Positions 12,642 through 64,000 of a stretch of DNA of 64,000 nt are shown here, in pieces. The DNA is taken from positions 2,418,001 to 2,482,000 of the forward strand of contig NC_013517.1 in assembly GCF_000024405.1 (NCBI RefSeq), in the 5' to 3' direction. Source of the DNA: Sebaldella termitidis ATCC 33386 (GTDB lineage Bacteria > Fusobacteriota > Fusobacteriia > Fusobacteriales > Leptotrichiaceae). Within the stretch, counting starts at the first letter, position 1; every line of letters starts with the position of its first letter. The position numbers and the translations under genes are program-made. The notes under the pieces were generated by a model. That model saw only the letters and a list, made by a program, of their open reading frames with translations, was not told where the DNA came from and ran no database searches.

Positions 12642-12664
12642 AAATTTTCTCCTCTTTGTCTTTC

Positions 12665-12952
12665 TTATCTTTTTCTTCTCATTCTTGCCTGTTCATCTGG
12701 CATTAATTCTTCCTCTTCAGCTTTTATTCTATCAAGCATAGTATACCAGTAACCTCTTTTTTCAGGTAGTGTTACATATACTGATTCCTGAGCTCTTCTT
12801 AAAGCTTTTTCATATGATGAGTATACACCGTCCTGATCATAATCTTTTGTTATACTATCTTCAACAGATTTACTCACCTGAACATCACCCTCTGCACCAT
12901 ACGCTGCAAAAGCCATTGTTCCCACTAAAAAAACCAATAGTATTTTTTTCAT
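12665..12952 (-). CDS. Small exported protein of the autotransporter-associated trio, 95 aa
   Basis: Signal peptide at residues 1-19 (MKKILLVFLVGTMAFAAYG), then an acidic-helical mature chain containing SITKDYDQDGVYSSYEKALR and a basic C terminus (QARMRRKR). No recognised domain; DQDG resembles a short acidic turn only. It is second in the operon, with SD AAGGAG 11 bases after the preceding stop. A decayed paralogue lies at 6713-6965, directly before an autotransporter gene, which ties this family to autotransporter expression or surface assembly by context. Confidence 0.7.
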   Translation of the reverse strand: MKKILLVFLVGTMAFAAYGAEGDVQVSKSVEDSITKDYDQDGVYSSYEKALRRAQESVYVTLPEKRGYWYTMLDRIKAEEEELMPDEQARMRRKR

Positions 12953-19255: not shown

Positions 19256-19269
19256 GTTTATATATAGTT

Positions 19270-19429
19270 GTTTAATAGTGCCATCCAATGGATGAGTGAC
19301 AAAGATGTTATCTCTGCCCCCACATTATACTCATGCCTTCATATAATGTTCGGCGATGGTTACCTTTCATATGCTTCCCAGCCTGCCAGCTCTGCATATT
19401 ACTAATTCTCACCGCTACCTCTATAAAAC
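19270..19429 (-). promoter_or_regulatory. Lysine riboswitch (L box) aptamer
   Basis: On the - strand the conserved blocks appear in order: ATAGAGGT-GCG, AATTAGTAATATGC, GAAAGGTAACCATCGCCGAA, a stem ACATTATA/TATAATGT, and a GGGGCAGAGAT/ATCTTTGTC stem. P1 is GTTTTATAG (19421-19429) with CTATTAAAC (19270-19278), one mismatch. Lysine binding should stabilise P1 and free the downstream strand for the terminator at 19224-19255, turning the transporter off. This is the established off-switch logic of the class. Confidence 0.92.
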
Positions 19430-19456
19430 CTAATTTTATTCTATTGTTATTAAATA

Positions 19457-48425: not shown

Positions 48426-48557
48426 CCATCTCTCCTTATTGCTCTCTTTTTTTATATTATAGTTTATTTTAAGAAGAAAATGAATTTTTTTATTGAATTT
48501 TAATAAGTAAAATAATATCCAAAATAACCGTAAACCATCATACTATGTCTAATATTA

Positions 48558-49331
48558 CTATATATTAAGTGATTTTTTTAATATTTTTCCTGATATCTCT
48601 GCTGTTTTCTTTCTTGTTAGAAATCTTGACAGCAAAGTTACCCCATAATTTTTCACACCGTCCACTACATACAGCTTGTTTTTCCCTGCTGCTTTTACTG
48701 CCGTTTTGACTACTTCCTCAGCTTTCCTGTGCATGCCCATTCCCACAGGACCGGCTGTATCAAAAAAACTTGTTTCAGTAGCACCGGGACATACTGCCGT
48801 GACTTTTATCCCATAGTTTTTATATTCCTGATGAAGAGCTTCCGAAAACGATAATACAAAAGCCTTTGTCGCTCCATATACTGCCATATAAGGTACAGGC
48901 TGAAAAGCCGCTGTAGATGCTATATTTATTATATTTCCGCTGTTCTTTTCTGCCATATCTTTTATAATAAAATATGTAAGATCTGCCAATGAAAGGCAGT
49001 TTAATATAATCTGATCATGCTGGCCGGCAAACTCCTTTTTATGAAATTCTCCGCTTGTGCCGAATCCGGCATTATTAACTAATATATCCACATGCAGGTC
49101 ATTTTGTTTTAATTCCCTATATAATTCCGCAGCCGAATTTTCTTTTGCCAGATCTTTTATCAGCACTTTTACGTCTACTGAAAACTTTTTTTCTATTTCT
49201 TTCTTTATTTTATCAAGTTTATCCTTTGATCTTGCAGTAAGTATGAGATTTTTTCCCTGACCGGCATACTCAAAAGCAAATGTTTTTCCTATTCCTGATG
49301 AAGCTCCTGTGATCAATACTGTTTCGCGCAT
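48558..49331 (-). CDS. Short-chain dehydrogenase/reductase (classical SDR)
   Basis: NAD(P)-dependent oxidoreductase of unknown substrate, 257 aa. The Rossmann cofactor motif is TGASSGIGKTFA at residues 7-18. NNAG is in VDILVNNAGFGTSGEF, the catalytic Ser in INIASTAAFQPVPY, and the YxxxK pair in YGATKAF. Arg in ILTARSKDKLDK suggests NADP(H). Similar to YqjQ/DltE-like SDRs of Firmicutes. It is translated directly after merR (stop and start are separated by one base, SD AAGGAG inside the merR 3' end). Confidence 0.9.
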   Translation of the reverse strand: MRETVLITGASSGIGKTFAFEYAGQGKNLILTARSKDKLDKIKKEIEKKFSVDVKVLIKDLAKENSAAELYRELKQNDLHVDILVNNAGFGTSGEFHKKEFAGQHDQIILNCLSLADLTYFIIKDMAEKNSGNIINIASTAAFQPVPYMAVYGATKAFVLSFSEALHQEYKNYGIKVTAVCPGATETSFFDTAGPVGMGMHRKAEEVVKTAVKAAGKNKLYVVDGVKNYGVTLLSRFLTRKKTAEISGKILKKSLNI

Positions 49332-49332
49332 A

Positions 49333-49758
49333 TTATTCTCCTTCTTTCTTAATATATGTATTATAAATTTTTTCTATTAATTTATCTGCTTCTTTTTCCT
49401 CACCGTCTTTTGGCTTTTCAAATAACAGAATCAGCTTGAATAAATTAATCAGATTTGTATATTCCTCCTTTTTTCTTTCCAGCTCACTGATTTGCTCTTC
49501 AAACATTTCACCTGCCAGAGTTCTGCTCTCACTGCTTGAGTCGCATGTTTCATACAAAGTAACCAGTTCTCTTATCTTAGCTATGCTAAAATTAAAACTT
49601 TTCAATATCAGAATACATTTTATCTTCATTATGTCTTCTTTAGCAAAAATCCTGTAGTTATTTTTATCTCTTTTCGGATTTATCAGCTTTTCATTTTCAT
49701 AATAGTGCAGACTTGAAACCGGAATTTTTAATATTTTACTTACTTCTTTTACTGTCAT
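49333..49758 (-). CDS. MerR-family transcriptional regulator
   Basis: A 141-aa regulator. The N-terminal winged helix reads TVKEVSKILKIPVSSLHYYENEKLINPKRDKNNYRIFAKEDIMKI, with the MerR S-LHYYE signature. A long dimerisation coil follows at about 75-115 (SEISELERKKEEY-like). The single Cys at about residue 72 and the absence of paired metal Cys argue against a metal sensor. It leads the operon with the SDR gene. Its promoter has the 19-bp spacer and dyad expected for MerR control. Confidence 0.9.
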   Translation of the reverse strand: MTVKEVSKILKIPVSSLHYYENEKLINPKRDKNNYRIFAKEDIMKIKCILILKSFNFSIAKIRELVTLYETCDSSSESRTLAGEMFEEQISELERKKEEYTNLINLFKLILLFEKPKDGEEKEADKLIEKIYNTYIKKEGE

Positions 49759-49787
49759 TTTATTTACCTGCCTCTAAAGTTTTTTCT

Positions 49788-49819
49788 ATCTTAACACTCA
49801 ACCTTACTTTAGTGTCAAG
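49788..49819 (-). promoter_or_regulatory. MerR-type promoter with 19-bp spacer and dyad operator
   Basis: TTGACA (49813-49818) and TAAGAT (49788-49793) are 19 bases apart. The dyad CTTGACACT-N12-AGTGTTAAG (8 of 9 paired) fills the spacer. MerR proteins twist exactly such over-long promoters into an active form. The rest of 49820-50026 is AT-rich with nothing identified. Confidence 0.8.
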
Positions 49820-50029
49820 AAAAACTTTAAAATTATTTTTTGTTTCATTACTATTATTTCAAACTAACTCATATTTTCAGGTAAATTATAACTAATCAAA
49901 TTTAATAATTAAACAATGCTCTTTACTGTACTGCCAAAATTCTACCTGTTTCTATCCAATTGCTGCTGTCTTTGATATTCTGCAGTAATCTGTTACTGTA
50001 TTTTCAGTTTTACATATTCTTTTTAAAAC

Positions 50030-50056
50030 AAAAAAGACCAGTATCAACTGATCTTT
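50030..50056 (-). terminator. Terminator of the second autotransporter
   Basis: AAAAGATCAGT...ACTGGTCTTTTTTG stem and T tract on the - strand, about 140 bases beyond the autotransporter stop at 50195. Confidence 0.65.
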
Positions 50057-50194
50057 TAAGTATCTTTTATTTAAATAATTGAGGAATTTATTTTAAATAA
50101 AAAGTTTTATATATATTTTATCTGCCTGAAAAATTTTTCACTTCAAATATGAACATACCATTTATTTTTATTTGAATTCCGCTTTTTTAAAACC

Positions 50195-53100
50195 CTAAAA
50201 TACTGCCTTAAGTGTTACTCCCACTCTGTAATCATCCTGTTTGTCATTTCCGGCTCTGTAGTCTCCTGTTACAAAAATTCCATATCTGTCTTCTACTTCC
50301 ACACCTAATGAAGCTCCTGTTCTTATCTGGCCTTTATCCTTCTCCGGCTTTGCCAGCTTATGATAATCTGTCTCTACATTTACAAGCTTTGCATATTCTC
50401 TCTCATTCAGGTCACCAAGCTCATATTCATAAGCCACATCTACTGCTCCTTTTAGTTTCCAGCTTTCACTGCTTCCTAGCGGCATTTCTCCTTTTAGCTC
50501 TACCCCGACTCTTGGTTTTACACTCCATGCATCATTTCCTTCTACTTCCAGTGCTTCCAAACCATTCTCGCTGAATGTCGGTCTTGTTGTGTACATAGCT
50601 TTTAATCCTCCGTAAGGTGTTACACTTGCTCTTTTTCCCAGTGATATTTCCTTTCCTAATTTATTATCACTTGTTATACTGTAAGTTTCATAATTCCCGC
50701 TCATATTTGAACTTCCTGCATTTGTCCAATCCAGATTTCTGTCCACATTATGCAGATTCATTCTTCCTGTCAGGTCATTTCTTAATATCCAGTCATTCGA
50801 CTTATATTTGCTGTGTAATCCTAACTGAACAGTATCTACATCTTCCTCACTGTTATTACCGTCTTTGAATTCAAAGTTCGTATGTGAATATCCAGCTGAA
50901 TAACCGAATGTATGCTTGTAAGTTCTCTCTACTTCCCTTAGTGCCAAGGCTCCTACAGTTTCATAATCATATCCGACTACTCCTTCTGTATCTTCTTTTA
51001 CGCTTCCTTTTCCTGCCAGTACATTTATTTTTACATTTTCTTTTGTATTATTCTTTGAATTTTGCAGAAGATTCAGAGAACTCTCAAATACATCTGCTAT
51101 TGTTTCTTCTCTCTGGTTCATATTTGCATATATGTCACCTGCAAGGTTTGACATCGTTCTTCTGAAATCATATTCTGTTTCTATTGTATCTATCTTATCA
51201 AATATCAGTCCGGCATTTCCTGCTGAGCCTGCATATTTTGTATCCAGAGCCAGCCCGAAGTCTTCAAACCATAAACCGCTTGTAAACTCGTCATACGGTA
51301 TCTTCTGCATCCAGATATCTACATTTCCTCTGCTGTTTATTACCGGTGTTGCTGACCATGTCAGTGATTTACTCTTTACCTTTACAAGTCCTGAATTTGG
51401 TCCTCCCTCTTCTGTTGTGGGATTAAATACATCTTTTAGTTTATATGTTTCCGCATGAGTACCTGCTGCAAATCCTGACATTATATTTATAGGATCTGTT
51501 GTACTAAAGCTTGGCGCATAAAATTTTACTGCATCTGATACAAAGGCTGCTCCCATATCCTCCATTATTTCTGCTGTTCTCATTGAATCGGGATCTGCTT
51601 TTATTGATATATCCAGACCGTTTGTTTCAAAATTCTCGCTTACATTTATTACACCTGCATTTATTATACTTGGCACCGGATAACTGCTTGCTGTTCCGTA
51701 AGATACCGTTTCCGAATTTACCAGTCCTGATGCTAAGTTTATTGTTCCGGAGTTTACTAATTTACCTTCTCCTTTTAGAAGTACTCCCTGACTGTTATTT
51801 CCGTTTATATTTATCGTACCCTGATTATCAAGTGTTGAAGCAAGATTTAAGTATACACCCTGTGAGGAATCCCCGTTTACCGTTACTATTCCGTAGTTTG
51901 TTACTGTTGCTCCTTTATTTGCATAAATTCCCATTGAGCTGTTTCCGCTTAATGTTACATTTCCATAATTATCAAGTGTACCGTTCTCTATGAAAAGCCC
52001 TATTGCTCCCTCTGCATCTGATATTATATTACCGTGATTTTCTACATTACTTTCCGAACCAAAAATTCCTACTCCGTAATATCCTACTTTTATATCTCCG
52101 CTGTTATATATCTGTGAATTCTTTCCGTATATCCCTACGGCATATCTGTTATTTTCAGTATTCATCGTATCCAGTATTACAGAATCTCCTACTGTTATAT
52201 TTCCTGTATTGTATATACTTCCATCTTTATTGTAAATTGCTATATTAGATACTCCTGTATCACCTGTTATATTTCCGCTGTTTGCTATAGCTCCGCCGTT
52301 TACCGTATAAAATCCGAATGAATCTGAGCCTGTTAATATTACATCTCCGCTGCTGCTTATAGTTCCGGCACCGTCTCCATATACAAATGTTCCGTTATCC
52401 GCTACAGCTGCCTGTGAATTATTTGTCAGATTTGATCCCGATTTCAAAGCATAACCATAGCTTCCGTTTCCTACTGCTGCAGTTCCTGAATTTACAACAT
52501 TACTTCCATTTATTGCGTATACTCCTACTGCACCATTATCTCCTGTTATCAGGTTAGAACCTGTATTCAGATTTACTGCTGCCGAATCTGCATATACTCC
52601 TATTCCTCCTGTTGTTATCACAGAATCTTGATTTACTGTTCCTCCTAAGCTGTATACACCTATGCTGTTTATTCCAACTGCTATTGTCCCTGTATTAGTT
52701 ATAACATCTCCGGCTGTTTTACTGTATATTCCTATTCCGGGATTTGACGAATTTAATGAATCACCTATTCTTATTGTTCCAATATTATTTATTGATTTTA
52801 TTCCCGTACCTTCTGCATGTATTCCTCTTGCCTTATCACCGCTTAAGTCTATCAGTCCGGCATTTGTCACAGTTCCTGCATTGGAAGTATTCAGATACAT
52901 TCCTACTGTTTCCGGAGAACTTCCGTTTATCACTCCGCTCATCGTGTTAGTTACTTTATCTGTTTCTTTTCCGTATATTCCCACAGAATTTGCTCCTGCT
53001 GTTACTGCTCCTGAATTGGTCAATGATGATCCCGTTCCGTTTGTTTTCATTCCCAGTGAGCTGTTTCCTACAGTTATATTTCCTGAATTCAGCAGTCTTG

Positions 53101-56100
53101 TTCCATTTTTCCCGTATAATCCTGCTGAGTTATCTCCAAGTGTTATATTTCCTCTGTTTTCTCCATCTGTATCCGGTATAAATCCTGCCGGCAGTGTTCC
53201 TATATACTGACCGTCCAGTGAGACAGCCACCACATTATTGCCTGTTGCTGATACATTAGAATTACTATCCAGCAATACTGCCGAATTATTTCCCATTATC
53301 AAACTTCCATTTTCAGATAATGATGATGTACCGTCATATATAAATGTAGTATTCGATATTTTACCTACTGTATATGTAGACCCTGCTGTGGAACTTACTG
53401 TAAAATTATTATTAAATATCCCGTTTGAAGTTACATTAAATAATGCTATATTCTGCCCGTCTATATTTATATTCCCGTTTCCATTAAAAGTTGTTGTTCC
53501 GTCAAGGTAAAATCCCAGTGAATTATTTCCTTTTATATTTAATGTCATACCGCTCAGGTTCACATTACTGTCCTTTGCATACATTCCAAGCGAGTCTGAA
53601 CCTACTGTAAGTGTTCCTCCTCCTGTTACTGTTGTATTTACTGCATATACTCCTGTTCCGCCTTTTGAACTTGATATATCTATTGTACCGTTCCCAAGAT
53701 TTATTTTGGAATCTGCTGTAGGAACGGCATTATTGGCTGCATATATTCCATATACTTTCCCAGTTCCTTCAGATACTATTTTACCATTATTAGTTATATC
53801 TATTTTATTATTTCCATATCCTAATACTGATGAATCTGTTACTCCGTCAAGATAATTGACCCCGTATATTCCTGCACTGCTGGTTCCTCCAGTTATTATA
53901 TCCCCGTTATTTTCGGTTACCGTTCCGTTTGCTGAATACACTCCTACCGACTTATCTCCTGTTGTTCTTACCTTATTATTATTTATTATATGTCCGTAAT
54001 CTGTAGCTAAGCCTATTGCACCGGAACCGCTTAAATCTACTGTTCCTATGTTTGTTATTTTTACTGTATCTACTCCTGATGAGCCGGCATAATTTCTCTG
54101 AGCTATACCTGTCTGATTATTCTGTGTTCCTGTTATTATTTTTCCGCTCTCAAGGCTTACAGAAGCTGATGAAAATTCTGATCTTTTATATAGCTCACTG
54201 CTGTTATCCATATTTATATTTCTGTCTAATACCAGTGTTCCTTTATTCATAGATACCGGTATATAATCCGAGGCACTTGCTGCATTTATTGTTACATTAT
54301 TCCCTATTGCCCCTCCTGCATTTGTTACACTGTCAAGAGCGGTCAGATTAAATGTTCCGCCTTCACCGTCAAGAATATACAGCTTTGATCCGGATTTTAA
54401 CATTAAGTCAAGATTTCCCGTTCCGATAAATGAATTATTCAGATAATTTGTCAGTGTAGTACCTGATTTTATGTAAAAGGCATTTCCGCCGTTTTCTACT
54501 GTTGCGCCCACTGTTCCTGTAACATTATATTTCCCTGTCAGTGCAGAGCCGTCATAGTTATAGAATAAAAGTCCTTTGTTTCCTGCTGTAAGATTCACTC
54601 CCTGATTAAGATTCATTACAGATCCTGTTCCTGCATACAGCCCTATTCCTCCGTTTTCAGATTTTATTGTTCCGCTGTTAAGAGCAGCCCCTGCATTTCC
54701 TGCTTCACTGTATACACCTACAGAAGCCAGACCGTCAACATTTATCGTCCCGCCATTCATAGTAAATGTGCTGTCATTATATACACCAAGGTTTCCGGCT
54801 GATACATTTATTGTTCCTGTATCGCTTAATTCACCTGTTCCGCCTGTTTTTACCGCAATTCCTGTATTATTGGTTCCATTTACTTTTATATTTCCGTTTT
54901 TATGATAAAAATATCCGTAATCTTCTATCTGGACTCCGACCTGTTTATTTCCGTCTATATTCATTATCAGACCGTCAGTTGTTACTCTTGCACCTAAGAA
55001 TCCTAATAAATCAACTGTTTCTGTATAGCCCGGATTCCATACCGGATCCGGCTCATATGTTACTGTTGATGAATTAGAGCCGCGTAAATATATCCCGGCA
55101 TTTCCTTCACTCCCAGCCAATAGATTTATTTCATGATTTGTTGTAGTATCCGAGGAACTTCCTAAAATAACGTCTCCGTAATCTTCTACTCTTAGGCCTA
55201 CCCCTCCTCTTGAATATTCGCCTACATTAAGAAGATAGTCTGATAATGTAAACTGTGGATTCTCTGCCATATATCCGCTTATATTCACATTATTTGCAGG
55301 ATTATTCTGATCATATACATATTTTGAATAATACATTACATTGTTTCCCATATTTACATATATGCCCGCAGCACTATCTGTGTATGCCGAACTCCCTCCG
55401 GCAATATTACCGCTGTTTTCAAGACCATTCACTCCTGCCGAGCTTGCTGCTGTCTGTCTTGGATCTTCTGTTCCTATATCCACCTTTATCTTGGAATTGG
55501 CAAAGTTAAGCTCTCTCTCTATATCTACTCCTATACTTTGATCTCCAAGTAATGTTATAGGATTATAAAGTCTGATTTCTGTTCTTTGAAGACCATTGTA
55601 TATTGATTTTGATTCATTCCATGTTCCATTTGAATAATAATATGCATACTCATTTTTACTCATCATCGGGGCATTATGTGTGTATACACCTATATTATTA
55701 TTTCCGTACAGCTTCATATCACCATTGTTCATTAATATATGTTTTCCCGGATTATCACTTATATTATTATTTCCATAACTATCATTTGATTCATTGTAAC
55801 TATATGAATATGCGTTATTTGTCATAAGAAATAAAACGCTTTCAGGTGCTCTCATTTCTATTAATCCTGTATTATCAAAACCTTCCTGCTTTCTCTGGCT
55901 TCCGCCTTCAGTAAACATAAAAGCAACGTGCTTCCCTACAAGGTTATTAGTACTGCTTGCCTCGTTAAGTCCTATTATTTCTCCCCTGTTCATAAATATA
56001 CTGTTGGCATCCTGATATCCGCTGTGTGCCTGGAGATTTACCGCTACGACATTTGAGCCTTTCAGATTCCATGAACTGTTATTTTCCACATACTGAAACC

Positions 56101-57502
56101 ATCTATTATCTGTAGTATGCCCCAGTGTAGTATCCAGAAATTTATTCCCTAATTCTGTTTTTTCAGCAGCTGTAATCCAGTTTCTTTCCTCCAGCTCATC
56201 AAGTGCATAATTTTTCCATTCTCCTGTAACAGGATCCTGCATACCGCTGTAATGTTCATCATAGTGAAGGATCTGTACCAAATAATCTGCATTTACTACA
56301 TCCCCTTCAAGTGTTACTTTCAAATCATTAACATTCCCGCCTGCAGTCCCAAATCTTGTTATTGGATTATCTATTACTTTAAATAATCCCTGCACCTGAC
56401 CACCCTGCGGATTATTATTAATAGAGTTTGTATATATTCCTGTTGGTAGCAGTGCCTCTTCATAGGTCCATGTTCCTAATACAGGGTCATAAGTCCCTCT
56501 TTGATTATATTCAAGACCGGCAGATGGTGTTCCTATTACATTATCCAATGTATAGTCATAAAATCCCGGATTTGTAGTTGACCAGGTCAACACTGGGTTA
56601 ATATTCGTTCTCACATTTATAGTTCCGCTCGTAATATCCATCTGTGATATTATTGAGTTTGATCCATTATCATCTCCATAAGGGAAGAAACCTGTTATTC
56701 CTCCGTTTCCTCCTCCTGTACCATTCAGACTTAATACTGGTATCGAATTAAAGTTTATTGTTGTTATATTTGGTATTGTCGGATTAAATGATGTTATATT
56801 CAGATTCGGTATATCCAGTGCATCCGGCATTGTGAATTCAAGAGTTCCGCTCTCTAAATCCGATACTGCTACATCAGTTATCAGAAGATCAGTTATCCCT
56901 CTGTCCACACCTTTCATATTAATGCTAATTCCTAAATCCACTACTTTAACATCATTATCATTTCTATATGGCTTAAATTTTCCTAATGTACTGTAAGTCA
57001 TTCCCTGAAATAATTTGTCAACTAATTCTTTTTGGTTTGTCGACAATTTTTCATAATCTGCTTTGTTTCCTTTTAGTATACTTTGCAGCATATCGTTACT
57101 TACTCCGCTTTGCAGTATACTGTTATATATTTCTCCACTTATTGTATTTAAACTTCCCGCTGTTTCCGGAAATGCATAGTACTTTGCATTATCCAGCGTA
57201 TTATCTCCTCTTTCTTTTTCACTGTAAAAACCGCTGAAAAATACCTGCCATTCGAGATATTCCGGCTTTACTACATAGTCTCCCTGTAAATACAAATCTT
57301 TTAATTCTTTATTCTTTTTATTAAGTATATTTTCAAGCAGTTCATAATTTGATTTATTTGACTTTCCTGTTTCGGCATTTTTTATCATTTTATTATATAG
57401 CTGATCGTACTTTACCTGATTTACTCCGGATTGAGCACTGCCCGCTGCGACTGCAAGCGAGTTTAATGCTAAAACAGTTAATAATTTTTTATTTCTTTTC
57501 AT
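50195..57502 (-). CDS. Giant autotransporter adhesin (type Va secretion), about 2435 aa
   Basis: Same architecture as the protein at 15-6704. A signal peptide (MKRNKKLLTVLALNSLAVAA) is followed by a conserved helical region (NKKNKELKDLYLQGDYVVKPE, then YLEWQVFF). A unique segment to about residue 300 is followed by a beta-helix passenger of N-x-G / GIY repeats. The final 280 or so residues are a barrel ending KAVF that is close to the first protein's (shared SITSDN, NGLEALEVEGNDAWS, LNERE). The ATG at 57502 with SD AAGGAGACG is preferred; the frame opens 36 bases earlier. Unlike many autotransporters in this phylum, no small exported genes precede it; the upstream region has a promoter, AT-rich DNA and a repeat. 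Confidence 0.93.
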   Translation of the reverse strand: MKRNKKLLTVLALNSLAVAAGSAQSGVNQVKYDQLYNKMIKNAETGKSNKSNYELLENILNKKNKELKDLYLQGDYVVKPEYLEWQVFFSGFYSEKERGDNTLDNAKYYAFPETAGSLNTISGEIYNSILQSGVSNDMLQSILKGNKADYEKLSTNQKELVDKLFQGMTYSTLGKFKPYRNDNDVKVVDLGISINMKGVDRGITDLLITDVAVSDLESGTLEFTMPDALDIPNLNITSFNPTIPNITTINFNSIPVLSLNGTGGGNGGITGFFPYGDDNGSNSIISQMDITSGTINVRTNINPVLTWSTTNPGFYDYTLDNVIGTPSAGLEYNQRGTYDPVLGTWTYEEALLPTGIYTNSINNNPQGGQVQGLFKVIDNPITRFGTAGGNVNDLKVTLEGDVVNADYLVQILHYDEHYSGMQDPVTGEWKNYALDELEERNWITAAEKTELGNKFLDTTLGHTTDNRWFQYVENNSSWNLKGSNVVAVNLQAHSGYQDANSIFMNRGEIIGLNEASSTNNLVGKHVAFMFTEGGSQRKQEGFDNTGLIEMRAPESVLFLMTNNAYSYSYNESNDSYGNNNISDNPGKHILMNNGDMKLYGNNNIGVYTHNAPMMSKNEYAYYYSNGTWNESKSIYNGLQRTEIRLYNPITLLGDQSIGVDIERELNFANSKIKVDIGTEDPRQTAASSAGVNGLENSGNIAGGSSAYTDSAAGIYVNMGNNVMYYSKYVYDQNNPANNVNISGYMAENPQFTLSDYLLNVGEYSRGGVGLRVEDYGDVILGSSSDTTTNHEINLLAGSEGNAGIYLRGSNSSTVTYEPDPVWNPGYTETVDLLGFLGARVTTDGLIMNIDGNKQVGVQIEDYGYFYHKNGNIKVNGTNNTGIAVKTGGTGELSDTGTINVSAGNLGVYNDSTFTMNGGTINVDGLASVGVYSEAGNAGAALNSGTIKSENGGIGLYAGTGSVMNLNQGVNLTAGNKGLLFYNYDGSALTGKYNVTGTVGATVENGGNAFYIKSGTTLTNYLNNSFIGTGNLDLMLKSGSKLYILDGEGGTFNLTALDSVTNAGGAIGNNVTINAASASDYIPVSMNKGTLVLDRNINMDNSSELYKRSEFSSASVSLESGKIITGTQNNQTGIAQRNYAGSSGVDTVKITNIGTVDLSGSGAIGLATDYGHIINNNKVRTTGDKSVGVYSANGTVTENNGDIITGGTSSAGIYGVNYLDGVTDSSVLGYGNNKIDITNNGKIVSEGTGKVYGIYAANNAVPTADSKINLGNGTIDISSSKGGTGVYAVNTTVTGGGTLTVGSDSLGMYAKDSNVNLSGMTLNIKGNNSLGFYLDGTTTFNGNGNINIDGQNIALFNVTSNGIFNNNFTVSSTAGSTYTVGKISNTTFIYDGTSSLSENGSLIMGNNSAVLLDSNSNVSATGNNVVAVSLDGQYIGTLPAGFIPDTDGENRGNITLGDNSAGLYGKNGTRLLNSGNITVGNSSLGMKTNGTGSSLTNSGAVTAGANSVGIYGKETDKVTNTMSGVINGSSPETVGMYLNTSNAGTVTNAGLIDLSGDKARGIHAEGTGIKSINNIGTIRIGDSLNSSNPGIGIYSKTAGDVITNTGTIAVGINSIGVYSLGGTVNQDSVITTGGIGVYADSAAVNLNTGSNLITGDNGAVGVYAINGSNVVNSGTAAVGNGSYGYALKSGSNLTNNSQAAVADNGTFVYGDGAGTISSSGDVILTGSDSFGFYTVNGGAIANSGNITGDTGVSNIAIYNKDGSIYNTGNITVGDSVILDTMNTENNRYAVGIYGKNSQIYNSGDIKVGYYGVGIFGSESNVENHGNIISDAEGAIGLFIENGTLDNYGNVTLSGNSSMGIYANKGATVTNYGIVTVNGDSSQGVYLNLASTLDNQGTININGNNSQGVLLKGEGKLVNSGTINLASGLVNSETVSYGTASSYPVPSIINAGVINVSENFETNGLDISIKADPDSMRTAEIMEDMGAAFVSDAVKFYAPSFSTTDPINIMSGFAAGTHAETYKLKDVFNPTTEEGGPNSGLVKVKSKSLTWSATPVINSRGNVDIWMQKIPYDEFTSGLWFEDFGLALDTKYAGSAGNAGLIFDKIDTIETEYDFRRTMSNLAGDIYANMNQREETIADVFESSLNLLQNSKNNTKENVKINVLAGKGSVKEDTEGVVGYDYETVGALALREVERTYKHTFGYSAGYSHTNFEFKDGNNSEEDVDTVQLGLHSKYKSNDWILRNDLTGRMNLHNVDRNLDWTNAGSSNMSGNYETYSITSDNKLGKEISLGKRASVTPYGGLKAMYTTRPTFSENGLEALEVEGNDAWSVKPRVGVELKGEMPLGSSESWKLKGAVDVAYEYELGDLNEREYAKLVNVETDYHKLAKPEKDKGQIRTGASLGVEVEDRYGIFVTGDYRAGNDKQDDYRVGVTLKAVF

Positions 57503-57626
57503 TTCGTCTCCTTCATTTACATTACTAAGCAAAAACAAATCCCAGCATTTTATATCAATAATTAAAAAACTGACTCTCCCTTCTTTTGAAGCTTCTGCAT
57601 ATTTTTGATATAATCATTTTGAGATT

Positions 57627-57655
57627 ATTAAATAACTTTTGTTTTAATTTGGCAA
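57627..57655 (-). promoter_or_regulatory. Probable promoter of the second autotransporter
   Basis: TTGCCA (57650-57655), 17-bp spacer, TTTAAT (57627-57632) on the - strand; leader of about 115 bases. The DNA from 57660 to 58065 is extremely AT-rich, with no other feature that I can support. Confidence 0.45.
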
Positions 57656-58067
57656 GTAAAAAGATTATATACATTTTAAATTTGTAAGTCAACTAATTTT
57701 TAAAGTAAACTCTAGTACAAAATTTTCAGACATTTCTTTATTTTTTAAATTTTTTCATTAAATTCTTTTTTATATTTCCCCAATTATACTAATCGTTTAT
57801 TTTATTAACTGTAAGTAAAAACATTTCATTTCTCCATATTTAATATTAATATTTTTATTATTTTTTTTATATTTTAAAACAATTATTATTTATATAAAAA
57901 ACATTTTATAAATAATCTTTTTAAAAAAATTGTTATTTTATATTTTAATAGCAAATAATTTTATGCTTATATTTTACATTTTATATCTCTTTTACCATTT
58001 TTCATTATATAAATGCTATTTACATAATACTTCACCTGATTCCAATATTTTACGTGCCTTTCCTCCT

Positions 58068-58290
58068 TCATAAAATTTCTCTTTAGTAAGTAAAAATATA
58101 TTTCATAATATCAGTGTTCTAGATATTAATCTCCTAAATTTTCTATTCTTTTTTGATTTCATTCCACAGTCTTTATTTTAAGCTCTACGCCTTCTTTCTT
58201 TATATTTATATAATAGTACTTTTAATTTTTTTATTGCTTATACAATCATTAGAATTTCATTTTAATTTCGAAAGTAATTTCAAAGAAATA
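58068..58290 (-). repeat. Dispersed repeat, copy A (family with 62216-62595 and 63199-63600)
   Basis: The core at about 58175-58290 matches the other two copies: CTTTATAT...ATAATA, then TTTATTGCTTATACAAT.ATTAG, a T/A block, and AATTTCAAAGA (as written on +). A second shared block is ATTTCATAATATC followed by CTCCTAAATTTTCT at 58100-58150. No ORF is conserved among copies. Unlike copies B and C, no clear terminator follows it on the - strand. It lies in the long spacer between the autotransporter and the divergent amidotransferase. Confidence 0.55.
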
Positions 58291-58306
58291 ACAAATATAA
58301 TTAAAT

Positions 58307-58330
58307 ATTCTTATTCTTATTCTTATTCTT
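58307..58330. repeat. Hexanucleotide tandem repeat (ATTCTT)x4
   Basis: Four perfect copies of ATTCTT in the divergent spacer between the second autotransporter and the amidotransferase. Such tracts can change length by slippage. It is about 90 bases upstream of the amidotransferase -10 box. Confidence 0.8.
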
Positions 58331-58418
58331 GAGTTTAAAAATATTCTGCCAAAAATCATTTTCAACTGTTAAAATTCAATATTTATATTTTTATTTACTT
58401 TATATTCTATACTTTTTC

Positions 58419-58427
58419 TGTTATAAT
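58419..58427 (+). promoter_or_regulatory. Extended -10 promoter of the amidotransferase gene
   Basis: TGTTATAAT on the + strand (hexamer 58422-58427), 43 bases before the ATG, with only a weak -35 match upstream. Confidence 0.5.
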
Positions 58428-58469
58428 TTTATAGAAAATAATTAAACATAATTTATAAAGGAGGAAAAA

Positions 58470-59165
58470 ATGAATATTCATATCCTTCAGCATGTTCCTT
58501 TTGAAGATATAGGAGCAATCGACCGCTGGATAAATAAAGGAAATCACAAAAAATTTTATACCAAATTATATGCAGATAATCCTTTTCCGGCTATAGACAG
58601 CTTTGACTTTTTGATTATACTCGGCGGTCCCATGGGAACTTATGAAGAAGATAAGTATGTCTGGCTGATTAAAGAGAAAGAGTTTATTCATCAGGCAATA
58701 AAAGCCGGCAAAAAAATTCTGGGGATTTGTCTGGGCTCTCAGCTCCTTGCAGATGTTTTAGGTGCCAAAGTATATAAAAATAATAAAAAGGAAATCGGAT
58801 GGTTTCCCGTGACGCTGACTCCTGACGGCAGAGATCATGCTTTATTTGCCGGCATTGAAAATAGTATAAATGTACTTCACTGGCATGGTGATACTTTTTC
58901 TCTTCCAGAAAAAAGCATCCATCTGCTGGAATCAAAGGCATGTACCAATCAGGCCTTTCTTTATGAAACACATGTTTTAGGTCTGCAGTTTCATTTTGAA
59001 GCAGCACCTGACAGTGTGACTTCTATGCTGGAAAATGACAGCAAGGATCTTAGTATTTCTTTAGATTCCATACAAACTTCAGAAGAAATTCTGAATAATC
59101 TTCATTATTCCGGCAAGTCTAATGAAATTTTATTTACTTTACTGGATAGATTTTTAGCTTTATAA
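58470..59165 (+). CDS. Class-I glutamine amidotransferase-like protein
   Basis: A 231-aa stand-alone GATase1 domain of the GMP-synthase-like group. The oxyanion strand is LIILGGPMGTYEED, the nucleophile elbow ILGICLGSQLLADVLGA (Cys near 90), and the His-Glu pair is in GLQFHFEAAPDS. LHWHGDTFSLPE is the conserved segment following the core. These proteins may deglutaminate gamma-glutamyl compounds or act with an unknown synthetase; no partner gene is adjacent. SD AAAGGAGG. It is one of two + strand genes. Confidence 0.88.
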   Translation: MNIHILQHVPFEDIGAIDRWINKGNHKKFYTKLYADNPFPAIDSFDFLIILGGPMGTYEEDKYVWLIKEKEFIHQAIKAGKKILGICLGSQLLADVLGAKVYKNNKKEIGWFPVTLTPDGRDHALFAGIENSINVLHWHGDTFSLPEKSIHLLESKACTNQAFLYETHVLGLQFHFEAAPDSVTSMLENDSKDLSISLDSIQTSEEILNNLHYSGKSNEILFTLLDRFLAL

Positions 59166-59175
59166 TTTTTTAAAT

Positions 59176-59278
59176 AAAAAGAGCTGTACCCAAACAGATT
59201 TATAATAATCTAAATATATAAAGGTAAATCCTTTTCTATATTTTATAATTAGATCTCCGTTTTAATACAACTCTTTTT
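59176..59278. terminator. 103-bp inverted-repeat element / bidirectional terminator between convergent genes
   Basis: AAAAAGAGCTGTA (59176-59188) pairs with TACAACTCTTTTT (59266-59278), 12 of 13. The interior contains AGATT...AATCT and AAAGG...CCTTT helices. It fills the convergent gap and has T tracts on both strands, so it should terminate both genes. The loop of about 77 bases is unusually long for a simple terminator. Confidence 0.55.
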
Positions 59279-59290
59279 TATGGCAGAAAT

Positions 59291-60157
59291 TTATTTTCTG
59301 TATTCTATATTTTCAATATTAAATATGTAATTGCTGTCTAAATTACCATTCTTCTCATACCATGAATATTCAAGATGTGTCGGCACCATAAATCCGTTTA
59401 TTTCTTTATACTCGGATTTTTCACCTACTTCTCTTAATATTGCCTCATTTCCGTGAAGCATATAATCTTCTGTTTCCATCTTGGTTATTTGATTTTTTTC
59501 ATTAAATGTTACCAGATATCTTCCTTTCAGATCTCCGTATGTTATTTCCAGATAAGCATGCTTTTCATCTTTCGGAAGCCATTTTATATACTTGCTCGGC
59601 AGAAGTGCCCACGGAAAGTCAACTGCTGTTCCGTAATAACGAAGCATAAGATAAGTATATAATGATTTTCTCTGCTCCTCTGAGTAGTCTGTAGACATTA
59701 CAGTTTTCTGACCAAAAGCCTTTGCTCTCATATTATGCTTGTCCACAGAAAATGCATCTCTGCTTTCAAGTATCGGAAATTTTAGTATTTTATGCATATA
59801 CAAACCTTCCCACATATATTTCGGCTCTGTAGTTATACTGGTTTGGGCACTTTTTACCGCAAAGTAATTTTTGGATACAGGAAGCTTGAATATTCCTTTT
59901 TCTTTCCAGAATACATAGCTTACAGTTACTGATTTCTGACCGTTAAATGTATATTCAAAATACTTTCTTACCGGCTCCGGCAGATCTGTATATCTGTTTA
60001 AGTCGAGATTTATTTCCTGCACTTTTTCGTTTGCTGTTAATTCTTTTCTAAGCTTTTTATTTTCAGAACCAGATCTCATAAAACCCGATATATAAAAGCC
60101 CAGCAGTATTATTGCTAATGCCAGCAGCATTATAACTGCTCTTTTTAATATTTTCAT
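59291..60157 (-). CDS. DUF6544/DUF6920-type membrane-anchored protein, 288 aa
   Basis: One N-terminal membrane helix (residues 8-27, VIMLLALAIILLGFYISGFM) and a large extracytoplasmic domain. Recognisable segments are DLPEPVRKYFEYTF near 58, a MWEGLYMHKILKFPILESRDAF centre and AVDFPWALLPS near 180. These are the pattern of proteins annotated DUF6544/DUF6920, whose function is unknown. It is last in the GntR-ABC operon, 19 bases after the permease. It could be an accessory or lipid-related protein of that exporter, which is inference only. Confidence 0.7.
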   Translation of the reverse strand: MKILKRAVIMLLALAIILLGFYISGFMRSGSENKKLRKELTANEKVQEINLDLNRYTDLPEPVRKYFEYTFNGQKSVTVSYVFWKEKGIFKLPVSKNYFAVKSAQTSITTEPKYMWEGLYMHKILKFPILESRDAFSVDKHNMRAKAFGQKTVMSTDYSEEQRKSLYTYLMLRYYGTAVDFPWALLPSKYIKWLPKDEKHAYLEITYGDLKGRYLVTFNEKNQITKMETEDYMLHGNEAILREVGEKSEYKEINGFMVPTHLEYSWYEKNGNLDSNYIFNIENIEYRK

Positions 60158-60176
60158 TTTTACTCCTTATGTATTA

Positions 60177-60863
60177 TTATATTTGATCTATTTTCTTTCT
60201 CTGAAGATATACTGTTATTAAAAAAAAGATTATACAGAATGATAAATGCCATATTATTGACCATAATCCCAGTCTGTCGCCGCCGAAATGTCTTCCACTG
60301 CGAACAGTATCCGTAGAAAAAATAAGTACATTATGTCTTATCATTCCGTTTATAACAAACCATCCTATTACTGCTCCGGCTGTTATTACCTTTCTCCAGA
60401 TCCTGCTTATCGAAAAAGATTTTATCCATATCATAAAATATGAAATATAACTTACAGCGAGTGTTGTAAAAAACAGAATTTTTACCGGAAACATGAGCAT
60501 AGACTCCCATGAAAAGGCAAAATGATTGACTACAGTCATTTTATACACTAAAAAAAATACATATTCTGCAATAACTACTATTAGTACAAGTATATAACTG
60601 ACTATCAGTTTTGACAGTAAGATCTTTTCCGGTGTACTGTCTGTCATGGACACAAGCGTAAATGTTTCTTTTCCTGTATCATATAAATTGAATTTTATTA
60701 TAAAAATAACCAATATTATTGATAATATCATTACCCCTATTGCTGGTAAACCATGTGCTCTTCTTGAAATAACAGACATTATATTAAATAATATATAGAA
60801 TCCTGTAAGCAATATTATAAATCCTTTTGTTTCCCTAAAGTAAAACTGTACTAATCTGTTCAT
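60177..60863 (-). CDS. ABC-2 type exporter permease subunit
   Basis: A 228-aa protein with about six membrane helices (for example GFIILLTGFYILFNIM and GVMILSIILVIFIIKF). It has the FTLVSMTDSTPEKILLSKLI loop typical of small ABC-2 permeases such as YtrC/YtrD neighbours. It is placed between an ABC ATPase (83 bases upstream) and the DUF6544 gene. SD AAAGGAGAG. Confidence 0.75.
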   Translation of the reverse strand: MNRLVQFYFRETKGFIILLTGFYILFNIMSVISRRAHGLPAIGVMILSIILVIFIIKFNLYDTGKETFTLVSMTDSTPEKILLSKLIVSYILVLIVVIAEYVFFLVYKMTVVNHFAFSWESMLMFPVKILFFTTLAVSYISYFMIWIKSFSISRIWRKVITAGAVIGWFVINGMIRHNVLIFSTDTVRSGRHFGGDRLGLWSIIWHLSFCIIFFLITVYLQRKKIDQI

Positions 60864-60946
60864 TTTTCTCTCCTTTCGTTACTTTTGATAATTTTATATC
60901 TGATAATTCTTTTTTCATTTCTAACTGCTCCTTTTAATATGATTTT

Positions 60947-61657
60947 TCATGATACTTCAGTTTTCATTATTTCTCTGTAGAATTCTACTATTGATTTATC
61001 ATTTTTTTCTTTATATTCTTCTACATTAATATCTGCGGTTATTCTGCCTTCCTTCATTAACATTACTCTGTCTAGAAGCATTTCTATCTCATTTATAAAA
61101 TGAGTTGATAAAATTATTGTTGTTTCCGGATTAAACTCTCTCAAAATAAGGGAGTATATCTCTTCTCTTGCCACAAGATCAATATTGGCAAATGGTTCAT
61201 CCAGAAGATACAGCTTTACATTTCTTGATAAAGTAAATGCAAGCTTGGCTTTTGCCAGTGTTCCCGACGACATTGACCTGAATTCCGTATTTTCGCTTAT
61301 ATTCAAAATTTTCAGCATATCTGCATTCTTTTTTATATCAAAATCCGGGAAAAGTCCGGAAAAACTTTCTACAGCATTTTTTATTGTCCATTTTGGATTA
61401 AAGAGGTTAACTACAGGCATATATGCTAATTCTCTTTTTACTTTGTAATCCTGAACAGAAACACCATTTATACTTACTTCTCCTGAGCTGAGATGTGAAA
61501 GTCCGGCTATACAATTCAGCAGACTTGTTTTCCCGCTTCCGTTTTCTCCCAGCAGTCCGACTATCTGTCCTTTTTTTATTTCAAAACTTACATTCTTCAA
61601 TGCTTTTTCTCTCCCAAAATTTTTTACGGCATTTTTGCAGCTAACCAGTAATTCCAC
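60947..61657 (-). CDS. ABC exporter ATPase, YtrB-like
   Basis: A cytoplasmic ATPase of about 236 aa. Walker A is GLLGENGSGKTSLLNCIAG near residue 33. The signature is degenerate (MSSGTLAKAKLAFTLS), as usual for the YtrB/EcsA-like group. Walker B is LYLLDEPFANIDL, and the switch His is LSTHFINEIE. Start is ambiguous because there is no ATG: GTG at 61657 is two bases after the gntR stop and has AAGGAAG at good spacing, while GTG at 61666 overlaps gntR. It probably powers the adjacent permease. Confidence 0.88.
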   Translation of the reverse strand: MELLVSCKNAVKNFGREKALKNVSFEIKKGQIVGLLGENGSGKTSLLNCIAGLSHLSSGEVSINGVSVQDYKVKRELAYMPVVNLFNPKWTIKNAVESFSGLFPDFDIKKNADMLKILNISENTEFRSMSSGTLAKAKLAFTLSRNVKLYLLDEPFANIDLVAREEIYSLILREFNPETTIILSTHFINEIEMLLDRVMLMKEGRITADINVEEYKEKNDKSIVEFYREIMKTEVS

Positions 61658-61658
61658 T

Positions 61659-62018
61659 CTAATCACTTCCTTCTTTCTCTTTTATAAGACTTATAATATC
61701 TTCTGTATTAAATCCCATTTTCTTCATTTCCCTGATAAAATCGTTCACTATTTTTTCCGCTGCTTTCTCAGACAGGCTTTCTATTTTTTTGTTATCTCCT
61801 GTAACAAAGTTTCCCATTCCTCTTTTGGAATATATATACTCTTCCCTTTCCAGTTCCATATATGCCCTCTGTATTGTATTAGGATTCACGCCCAGCTGTA
61901 CTGCCATATCTCTTACTGAAGGCAGCTTCTGTTCTGCTTCCCACTCTTTTGTTATGAGCTTTAATTTTATAAATGCTATTATCTGTTGATATATAGGTAT
62001 ATTATCTTCAAATTTCAC
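61659..62018 (-). CDS. GntR-family regulator, YtrA subfamily
   Basis: A 119-aa repressor with winged helix: IPIYQQIIAFIKLKLITKEW, KLPSVRDMAVQLGVNPNTIQRAYMELEREEYIYSKRGMGNFV, then a short helical tail, which defines the YtrA type. GTG start with an excellent SD (AAGGAGGAGG). It is first in the operon with the ABC exporter it very likely represses. YtrA systems respond to cell-wall active antibiotics in Bacillus and Staphylococcus. That response is family knowledge, not shown here. Confidence 0.92.
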   Translation of the reverse strand: MKFEDNIPIYQQIIAFIKLKLITKEWEAEQKLPSVRDMAVQLGVNPNTIQRAYMELEREEYIYSKRGMGNFVTGDNKKIESLSEKAAEKIVNDFIREMKKMGFNTEDIISLIKEKEGSD

Positions 62019-62183
62019 TGCTCCTCCTCCTTACCAAAGACTTTTTTGATTAAACACCGGTTATTTAAGATTTTTAATTTAATTTCATTCTTTGTTTCTG
62101 TGTACTAGTTAAATAATACACTAATATTTTATAAATGTCAACTATTTTTATTTTTTGTGACTATTACAAAAATAAACTGTAAT

Positions 62184-62223
62184 AAAAAAAGAACTATCTC
62201 TACTCCTTCTAAGAGATAATTCC
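62184..62223 (-). terminator. Intrinsic terminator at the 3' end of repeat copy B
   Basis: GGAATTATCTCT...AGAGATAGTTC stem followed by seven T on the - strand. No ORF of useful size ends here. The unit it closes is repeat copy B. Confidence 0.72.
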
Positions 62224-62595
62224 TTGGTAGATGAAATATTATTTCATAATATCTGCCTTCTCAAATATTACTCACCTAAAATTTCTTTTTTAATAAAATA
62301 TAACTTCTACTGCACACACTGTATTTTTTGCAGAAACAGCTAATTTATATTCTGCTTTTATATGTTATATTTTATTCCGCTTGTGATATATAAATTTTTA
62401 TATATCAGCCTATTAGAAAATAATTTTTTTATTCTTTTTTATTTCATAAAACTCTTCATTGTACAGTTGTTTCTTATAAAAGCCCTTTGCCTTCCTGCTT
62501 TATATATATATAATAATACAATCATATTTATTTTTGCTTATACAAATATTAGTTTTATCTTTTAAATATCAAATATATTTCAAAGACTGAAAATA
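62216..62595 (-). repeat. Dispersed repeat copy B, candidate noncoding transcript of about 400 nt
   Basis: The core 62472-62592 is shared with copies A and C: CTTTATATATATATAATA, TTTTTGCTTATACAAATATTAG and ATATTTCAAAGA on the + strand. The 3' block ATTTCATAATATC...CCTAAAATTTC is also shared. On the - strand it lies between the terminator of the 118-aa gene (62611-62633) and its own terminator (62184-62223). No ORF is conserved with the other copies. Candidate small RNA gene or decayed gene family. Confidence 0.5.
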
Positions 62596-62610
62596 TAATT
62601 TCAAAAATAG

Positions 62611-62633
62611 AAAAAGCCTGCCGGCACAGACTT
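62611..62633 (-). terminator. Terminator after the 118-aa membrane protein
   Basis: AAGTCTG-TGCCGG-CAGGCTT followed by TTTC and T-rich DNA on the - strand; one G-U pair. It lies about 70 bases after the stop codon. Confidence 0.6.
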
Positions 62634-62703
62634 ATTAATACTGCTAATACTGTTTATTTACTTTCAGCGAAAAGCTGGTAAGCAGTTATAAAAAAAATTT
62701 ATA

Positions 62704-63060
62704 TTATTTTCTGGAAAAATACTTTTGTATATCAGGAATAACGAAATAAAACATAGCTATTAATGTCAAAAGCGCAATATTTCCCGGTCTTTTAAAATAT
62801 AACAAATTCACTGCAAGACATATTACAATTCCGGCTACCAGTATAAGTCTGCCGGCACTTTTTCCGTAAAATGAAAATACTCCTGCCCAAATCACAAGCA
62901 AACCAACAAGAAAATTTATAACAATAATATACGGTATCTGCCCTGACTGTGACAGATAATCCCATTTTTTAGAAAGAATGGATATTCCAGAATATACTCT
63001 GAGACACCCTACAAAAGTTGTAATTATACTTAATATTTTTAATGTCATAGGTTTTTCCAT
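62704..63060 (-). CDS. Hypothetical four-helix membrane protein, 118 aa
   Basis: Not recognised. Four hydrophobic segments: residues 8-28 (LSIITTFVGCLRVYSGI), 44-63 (IVINFLVGLLVIWAGVFSF), 70-86 (RLILVAGIVICLAVNLL) and 94-110 (IALLTLIAMFYFVIPDI), with a basic C terminus (KYFSRK). SD AAAGGAGG. Single gene between two noncoding repeat units, with its own terminator. A DoxX-like or small integral-membrane role is possible but unsupported. Confidence 0.7.
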   Translation of the reverse strand: MEKPMTLKILSIITTFVGCLRVYSGISILSKKWDYLSQSGQIPYIIVINFLVGLLVIWAGVFSFYGKSAGRLILVAGIVICLAVNLLYFKRPGNIALLTLIAMFYFVIPDIQKYFSRK

Positions 63061-63173
63061 AATTTATTCCTCCTTTTGATGACTAACACGTTTTACTAAA
63101 AAAACAAGCTGCTACACTAGATAATATCAAAAGAAAGAGAATAAAACAAGTATATTTTCTTTTTCATATTATA

Positions 63174-63201
63174 TAAAAAATCCCTGCCGGGGCAGAGATA
63201 A
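63174..63201 (-). terminator. Intrinsic terminator at the 3' end of repeat copy C
   Basis: ATCTCTGCC-CC-GGCAGGGAT stem followed by TTTTT on the - strand, GC-rich and strong. It shares AAATTATCTCT with the copy B terminator. Confidence 0.78.
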
Positions 63202-63600
63202 TTTCTTTGCAATTAATTCCTTTCAAAATATCATCTTTCTTTCTGATATTTATTCCACAAGAATTATATTATTTTCTTAGGTAAAATATGGATTAGTATC
63301 ATGTCCCGCATGGCGAATACGGCATAATACCCACAGTAAAGTATGCATTTATTGTGGCGATTTCAACAAAAGCACAGGATTTTTATCCATATTTTACTGA
63401 TTGATTTACCTTCACAGATAACATATTATATATCTGAGAAAATAAACGAATCTTTTTCAAACTTAACTCATCTGCATCTTTACTGCTCCTCTTCCCTTGT
63501 CTACATATATATAATAACTCTGCAAGTTTTTTATTTGCTTATACAATAATTAGTTTTTCATTTATATTATCTAATTATTTTCAAAGATAATATATTTACA
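63199..63600 (-). repeat. Dispersed repeat copy C, candidate noncoding transcript of about 420 nt
   Basis: The core 63478-63596 has ACATATATATAATA, TTATTTGCTTATACAATAATTAG and TTTTCAAAGA on +, as in copies A and B, and a TTTCAAAATATC block near 63220. The unit lies between the gltD terminator (63657-63696) and its own terminator (63174-63201), both acting on the - strand. It contains the inverted-repeat element at 63281-63397. Confidence 0.5.
63281..63397. repeat. 117-bp structured element with 13-bp perfect inverted ends
   Basis: GTAAAATATGGAT (63281-63293) and ATCCATATTTTAC (63385-63397) are exact inverted copies. The interior is richer in GC than the flanks and includes CCACA/TGTGG and ATGCCG/CGGCAT complements. 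It could be a small insertion (MITE or REP-like) in copy C or a folded RNA domain. No target duplication is obvious. Confidence 0.5.
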
Positions 63601-63656
63601 TCCTTTAATAATCTATCTGAATATCAAGTTATGTATAAATCTTTTGGCTGTTTATG

Positions 63657-63696
63657 AAAAAGAGCCGGATTCAAAATACAAAATGAATCCGGCTCT
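63657..63696 (-). terminator. Intrinsic terminator after gltD
   Basis: AGAGCCGGATTCA / TGAATCCGGCTCT 13-bp perfect stem followed by TTTTTCA on the - strand, 20 bases after the stop codon. Confidence 0.88.
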
Positions 63697-63716
63697 AATA
63701 TATTAAATTATAAAAT

Positions 63717-64000
63717 TCAGGAATTTGCTGATAGATATTTGTCCACTGCCTTAGCTGCTTCGCGCCCTTCTCTTATTGCCCAGACTACCAGTGACTGTCC
63801 TCTTCTCACATCTCCGGCTGCAAAATACTTATCCGTGCTTGTTTTGTAGTCTGCTTCGTCAGCTTGCACATTCCCGCGCTGATCCAGCTGTATTCCAAGA
63901 TTTTTTATTAAACCCTCATGTACAGGATGTGTAAATCCAATTGCCAAAAAAATTATATCTGCTTCAATAATAAATTCAGTTCCTTTTATTTCTCTGAAGC
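63717..64000 (-). CDS. gltD: Glutamate synthase small subunit / related NADPH flavoprotein, 3' part only
   Basis: The window holds the last 94 codons; the frame runs off the right edge. The end of the FAD/NAD(P)H domain is visible: ADIIFLAIGFTHP, then LGIQLDQRGNVQADEADYKTS, and the FAD-binding YFAAGDVRRGQSLVVWAIREGREAAKAVDKYL, characteristic of GltD. In glutamate synthase this subunit passes electrons from NADPH to GltB. The neighbouring genes that would confirm GltD over a GltD-like dehydrogenase subunit lie outside the window. Confidence 0.88.
   Translation of the reverse strand, partial: FREIKGTEFIIEADIIFLAIGFTHPVHEGLIKNLGIQLDQRGNVQADEADYKTSTDKYFAAGDVRRGQSLVVWAIREGREAAKAVDKYLSANS

What the first reader, a model, noticed from the sequence alone, without database searches (positions are those of the whole stretch)
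62184..63600. Candidate noncoding RNA family in two terminator-bounded units, with a third diverged copy
Copies B (62216-62595) and C (63199-63600) share a 110-bp 5' block with GCTTATACAA..ATTAG and TTTCAAAGA, and a 3' region ending in terminators that both contain AATTATCTCT. Each lies between same-direction intrinsic terminators, so each needs its own promoter, yet no ORF is conserved. Copy A (58068-58290) repeats the same blocks near the autotransporter. This is the best candidate here for an undescribed element.
Basis: partly seen in the sequence, partly recalled or inferred. Interest (0 to 1): 0.62.

Follow-up and report, generated by a model that had tools for sequence, protein, structure and literature searches.

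The report
Candidate small RNA genes in Sebaldella
Two stretches of gut-bacterium DNA between genes look like a pair of genes for structured, non-protein-coding RNA sharing one start region; one is kept in a related species, but nobody has shown that they are transcribed or what they do.

Summary
The window lies in a genome whose size equals that of Sebaldella termitidis. Three minus-strand copies (A, B, C) share an approximately 110-bp 5' block far beyond chance. B and C each sit behind one terminator and end in their own. The block splits in two: an upstream 38-bp part, CTTTGAAA-(25)-CTAAT with fixed spacing, and a TTGTATAAGC part. In 98 Fusobacteriota genomes the 38-bp part matches exactly only at A, B, C and a fourth locus D (upstream of a secretion operon) with its counterpart in a second Sebaldella genome. 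The body of B, from TTGTATAAGC through its terminator, is about 90% identical in a third Sebaldella genome, before a different gene (cinA), with no conserved reading frame. B and C fold better than shuffled DNA; C's middle is the most stable of 62 intergenic windows, ahead of a lysine riboswitch. Best reading: B and C are lineage-specific ncRNA genes, perhaps trans-acting sRNAs, sharing a promoter module; A is a degenerate copy before an autotransporter. Against: only A/B similarity extends 3' of the block, compensatory changes are almost absent, one independent structure test failed, no common sigma-70 promoter was found, and there is no RNA evidence.

The parts
62548..62585 (-). Copy B, upstream 38-bp module CTTTGAAA...CTAAT (proposed promoter or regulator module)
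   Evidence: Exact pattern match in only 5 places in 2 of 98 Fusobacteriota genomes; coordinates; absent at the G002 counterpart
62536..62545 (-). Copy B TTGTATAAGC; here conservation with G002 begins; possible -10 region (inference)
62184..62545 (-). Copy B proposed ncRNA gene body including terminator
   Evidence: Counterpart G002:C210:3467-3796, 299 of 333 ungapped positions identical; MFE z -3.29
62384..62407 (-). Copy B hairpin TGATATATAAA/TATATATCA, stem unchanged in G002
62294..62374 (-). Copy B long closing stem (arms 62374-62364 and 62304-62294)
   Evidence: one A-U to G-U change keeps pairing in G002
62184..62223 (-). Copy B intrinsic terminator (stem GGAATTATCTCT/AGAGATAGTTCT, U-run)
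   Evidence: Fold; G002 93% identical over 57 columns
62614..62633 (-). Terminator of the upstream gene, 28 nt before CTTTGAAA of copy B
63549..63586 (-). Copy C 38-bp module
63537..63546 (-). Copy C TTGTATAAGC
63174..63546 (-). Copy C proposed ncRNA gene body including terminator
   Evidence: MFE z -3.22; body without terminator z -4.81
63281..63397 (-). Copy C stem-closed, three-way-junction-like middle
   Evidence: Inverted repeat I17; z -5.20; most stable of 62 intergenic windows; no counterpart in 97 other Fusobacteriota genomes
63180..63199 (-). Copy C intrinsic terminator
63661..63696 (-). Palindrome followed by T-run on minus strand, upstream of copy C
   Evidence: Read; not in the scan
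58248..58285 (-). Copy A 38-bp module
58236..58245 (-). Copy A TTGTATAAGC
58058..58151 (-). Copy A stretch similar to the 3' part of B (75% over 100 columns); not structured, no terminator seen

Best explanation
B and C are two stand-alone non-coding RNA genes on the minus strand, each about 330-370 nt, each with its own intrinsic terminator. They share a promoter region made of a 38-bp module (CTTTGAAA...CTAAT, fixed spacing) followed by TTGTATAAGC. Shown: the shared block, the terminators, absence of a conserved ORF, better-than-shuffled folding of both, and conservation of the B body in another Sebaldella genome before a different downstream gene. Inferred: that they are transcribed, that initiation lies within the block (TATAAG as -10, weak -35 17 nt upstream), and that they act in trans like fusobacterial sRNAs, perhaps on surface-protein mRNAs, since two other copies of the module lie upstream of an autotransporter gene (A) and a ShlB-type secretion operon (D). 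Copy A is probably a degenerate paralogue whose block remains.
For: Shared block beyond all shuffles; exact 38-bp module in only 2 of 98 genomes. In B the upstream terminator stem ends 28 nt before the block, so a promoter upstream of the block has almost no room. B counterpart in G002: 88.6% over 290 columns plus 93% over 57 through the terminator, found in a search of 98 genomes. Downstream gene differs: gntR in own, cinA in G002, which argues for an independent unit. Frames in B/G002: synonymous/non-synonymous changed codons 3/22, 5/22, 8/18, with 5-10 stops per frame and sequence. Consensus fold of B/G002 z -4.42, 0 of 200 column shuffles as stable; without terminator z -2.25, 5 of 200; middle z -4.00, 0 of 200. 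Single-sequence z: B -3.29, C -3.22, G002 -4.12. C middle ranks 1 of 62 intergenic windows. Minus-strand purine fraction B 0.603, C 0.581 against 0.605 (sd 0.052) for coding strands of 48 window ORFs.
Against: No RNA data. Independent pairing test mixed: B's own MFE structure broke 6 pairs in G002 against 10.5 expected (P 0.02), its centroid 4 against 6.6 (P 0.14), the structures from G002 no better than chance (P 0.54 and 0.63); substitutions were not rarer in paired positions. In the consensus all 7 changed pairs are one-sided. A hairpin seen in A, B and C is deleted in G002. B and C bodies are not alignable beyond chance. The 38-bp module is missing before the G002 copy. The scan shows no promoter at a common position in the three blocks. 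B's plus strand folds about as well as its minus strand. A cytosine stretch as in FoxI/FoxJ is not seen in B.
Confidence: 0.5

Rival explanations
1. The conserved thing is a DNA control module (regulator site plus promoter) that was copied several times; what lies downstream is incidental. A and D drive surface-protein genes; B and C are promoter copies whose original genes were lost, ending in a terminator.
For: Only the block is common to A, B and C beyond chance; the 38-bp module keeps its exact length and is shared with D, whose downstream part shows no significant similarity; the block itself is not structured (z 0.15 in B, -0.25 in C).
Against: In G002 the body and terminator of B are kept while the 38-bp module is absent; the bodies of B and C are structured. 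The eleven other small secreted-protein loci of this genome showed no such module in the upstream sequence read.
Confidence: 0.25
2. B and C are cis-acting 5' leaders with attenuator terminators that control the gene downstream (gntR-ABC operon for B, a 118-aa membrane protein for C).
For: Each copy in the window lies upstream of a same-strand gene; terminators stand about 120-170 nt before the start codons; D is directly upstream of an operon.
Against: The gene downstream of B differs between species; gntR has its own promoter-like site TTGACA-17-TATTAT at 62141-62113; no Rfam match there at E 5.
Confidence: 0.12
3. Remnants of a small non-autonomous mobile element.
For: Several copies in one genome; B lies in different neighbourhoods in two genomes; C's middle is a closed inverted repeat.
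Against: Three of four genomic copies are within 5.4 kb and in one direction, which suits local duplication; no consistent terminal repeat or target duplication seen by eye; no plasmid or phage relatives beyond 35-36-nt matches; C middle occurs once in the genome.
Confidence: 0.08
4. Decayed protein-coding gene family.
For: Short frames of A, B and C look alike by eye over some 40 codons, with stops in A and B (frames).
Against: Ten translated fragments gave no convincing Pfam match (best E 0.03 and 0.076, below cut-off); B/G002 changes show no purifying selection in any whole frame; no start codon is shared.
Confidence: 0.04

Closest known systems
FoxI and FoxJ, sigma-E-dependent sRNAs of Fusobacterium nucleatum (PMC11005410; section 7 and passages read)
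   Same: Fusobacterial regulatory RNAs; the two share promoter motifs; they repress outer-membrane proteins and operons with type 5 autotransporters and fadA3 genes; FoxJ was first annotated as a 5' UTR.
   Different: FoxJ is about 156 nt with a conserved cytosine stretch; B/C would be 330-370 nt, B has no C stretch, and no sequence of FoxI or FoxJ was compared here. Sigma-E promoter motifs were not tested.
Lysine riboswitch RF00168 (window 19268-19431)
   Same: Structured RNA in the same window; served as yardstick for fold stability.
   Different: B and C match no Rfam model.
Bacterial sRNA genes in general
   Same: Own terminator, no ORF, intergenic, lineage-restricted.
   Different: Transcription and targets unproven.

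Membership tests
Stand-alone bacterial sRNA gene | Own intrinsic terminator | tested here: met
   C; B; kept in G002
Stand-alone bacterial sRNA gene | No conserved ORF | tested here: met
Stand-alone bacterial sRNA gene | Own promoter | tested here: inconclusive
   Room only within the block, but no common sigma-70 match
Stand-alone bacterial sRNA gene | Discrete transcript | not testable with these tools
   No RNA data for Sebaldella at hand; literature searches showed none (86: 0 papers)
Stand-alone bacterial sRNA gene | Base-pairing targets | not tested
   No target prediction run
Conserved structured RNA family | More stable than shuffled sequence | tested here: met
   for B, C and G002; not for A or D
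Conserved structured RNA family | Compensatory base changes | tested here: inconclusive
   Consensus: 7 one-sided, 0 double changes; on B's own MFE or centroid one double change, P 0.02 and 0.14; on G002's structures none, P 0.54 and 0.63
Rfam family (any of 4227) | Score above gathering or E at most 5 | tested here: not met
FoxI/FoxJ-like sRNA | Sequence homology or sigma-E promoter | not tested
   Only text of PMC11005410 was read
cis-acting leader (attenuator) | Same downstream gene across species | tested here: not met
   gntR in own, cinA in G002

The most novel reading that the evidence does not exclude
A Sebaldella-specific class of 330-370-nt structured RNAs with a stem-closed, three-way-junction-like core, made under a 38-bp control module that also stands before an autotransporter gene and a ShlB-type secretion operon, so that surface proteins and their RNA regulators are switched together outside the sigma-E circuit known from Fusobacterium.
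Probability: 0.13. Interest if true: 0.62.

Novelty: new member of a known kind. Interest (0 to 1): 0.4.

Why it matters
Regulatory RNA in Fusobacteriota is known from few cases, and the paper read here says F. nucleatum lacks common chaperones such as Hfq and ProQ (PMC11005410). A lineage-specific pair of candidate RNA genes sharing a control module with adhesin and secretion loci would give a testable second system, in a cultivated termite-gut species.

Tried and rejected
Sequence-only model R1 of the block found only A, B and C in 4 Sebaldella genomes (E 5.8e-24 to 3.4e-22; next hit 0.0198). I looked at ten weaker matches from that search and saw none with the block architecture.

TTGTATAAGCAA as a genome-wide operator: near matches were hardly above the reversed-pattern control (38 against 25); dropped.

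The block as a general leader of small secreted-protein loci: the module was found upstream only at D (own and G001), of 30 sequences examined (some too short to reach far upstream, some without a recognised first ORF); dropped. I first thought of these proteins as FadA-like from memory; no Pfam or NCBIfam model supports that.

B as a gntR leader: the G003 gntR-ABC counterpart has no such block before it.

Decayed protein. Plasmid, phage and viral relatives: searches gave nothing beyond chance-like matches; the four loci were not examined. Similarity of the 3' part of D with B looked striking by eye but scored no better than shuffles.

One search is the corrected search of the 98 Fusobacteriota genomes.

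Full report
Setting. The window is G000:C1:2418001-2482000 of a genome of 4,486,650 bases in 3 contigs. The published S. termitidis genome has the same total, chromosome and plasmid lengths (PMC3035275, passages; contig lengths), so I take the organism to be that strain.

Observation. Three minus-strand copies share a 5' block. Alignment scores exceed every one of 200 shuffles for each pair. The block has two parts. The first is CTTTGAAA-(25 nt)-CTAAT, with identical spacing in all copies. The second is TTGTATAAGC, followed by an AT-rich TATTATATA stretch. In B the preceding terminator stem ends 28 nt before CTTTGAAA. If B is transcribed on its own, its promoter therefore has to lie mostly in or after the block. 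No promoter match is common to the three copies, so reading TATAAG as -10 is inference.

Distribution. In 98 Fusobacteriota genomes the 38-bp part matches without mismatch at five places in two genomes: A, B, C, G000:C1:303486 (D) and G001:C16:45500. Matches with one or two mismatches are no more frequent than those of the reversed control pattern. D in both genomes lies some 350 nt upstream of small secreted-protein ORFs, in own followed by a ShlB/FhaC-type transporter. Own D lacks TTGTATAAGC, and D shows no significant similarity beyond the block. Copy A lies upstream of a 2447-aa autotransporter ORF (PF03797; partial match to the RadD model, far below its cut-off). A separate promoter-like site at 57692-57664 lies nearer that gene.

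Conservation of B. A search of the 98 genomes with the B body found G002:C210:3531-3747 at E 1.9e-78. The full counterpart runs from AATATTTGTATAAGC through the terminator, with a 28-nt deletion, 299 of 333 ungapped positions identical. Upstream of it the 38-bp module is absent. Downstream comes cinA, whose own-genome counterpart is window 47199-48425, in a match 92% identical. Between B and cinA the window has a further 13.7 kb (48508-62185), so either that stretch was inserted here or lost in G002. The body is thus kept with a different downstream gene. In no frame do changes or stops suggest coding.

Structure. Fold z-scores: B -3.29, C -3.22, G002 -4.12, A +1.07, D +0.80. Without terminator B is -2.52 and C -4.81; the blocks are at 0.15 and -0.25. 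Among 62 intergenic windows of up to 200 nt on both strands, C's middle is first (-5.87); the lysine riboswitch window is at -3.88; B's minus-strand window at 62219-62418 is at -2.63 and its plus strand at -3.15. Consensus fold of B with G002: z -4.42, 0 of 200 column shuffles; without terminator -2.25, 5 of 200; middle -4.00, 0 of 200. Consensus folds of B/C, A/B and A/B/C: z -2.38, -3.44, -2.22, with 2, 0 and 4 of 100 column shuffles as stable. By eye B and C both have a long AT-rich stem closing a middle part with two hairpins, at not quite aligned positions. Against structure: the test with structures from one sequence only was significant once in four versions (P 0.02, 0.14, 0.54, 0.63), and paired positions did not change less. 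I therefore rate structure as likely and covariation as unproven.

Known families. No Rfam match at gathering score in the window except a lysine riboswitch, and none at E 5 in 57450-64000. The closest kind in the same phylum is the sRNA pair FoxI/FoxJ of F. nucleatum, which repress outer-membrane proteins and operons with autotransporters and fadA3 genes (PMC11005410, section 7 and passages). I did not compare sequences with them. In the library searched, no paper held Fusobacterium, transcriptome, small RNA and Sebaldella together; of 68 papers naming Sebaldella 30 were listed, and none had a title on its small RNAs.

Verdict. B and C are good candidates for lineage-specific ncRNA genes, B the better supported by conservation and C by stability. 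The shared block is best seen as a control module. Copy A is likely degenerate. Function is open; a trans-acting role in surface-protein control is a guess from the company the module keeps.

Noticed in passing
G000 loci L185, L188, L189, L190, L191 (oriented positions about 1609-1838 and equivalents): Five small secreted-protein loci of this genome share a leader with a long near-perfect inverted repeat (about 20-26 bp, core TTTTACGAAT...ATTCGTAAAA, some 110 nt between arms); arm differences between copies look compensatory by eye. Possibly a more strongly supported structured element than the one given.
   Followed up: partly
window 48508-62185: 13.7 kb holding autotransporter, MerR, SDR, GATase, ABC and GntR genes and copy A is absent between the B counterpart and cinA in G002: variable region.
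   Followed up: partly
window 19268-19431 (-): Lysine riboswitch RF00168, 64 bits.
   Followed up: no
window 12372-12952 (-): One of 12 small secreted-protein loci in this genome; no Pfam or NCBIfam match above cut-off for its relatives.
   Followed up: no
window 62704-63060 (-): 118-aa membrane protein between B and C without Pfam or NCBIfam match; weak relatives in all four Sebaldella genomes.
   Followed up: no
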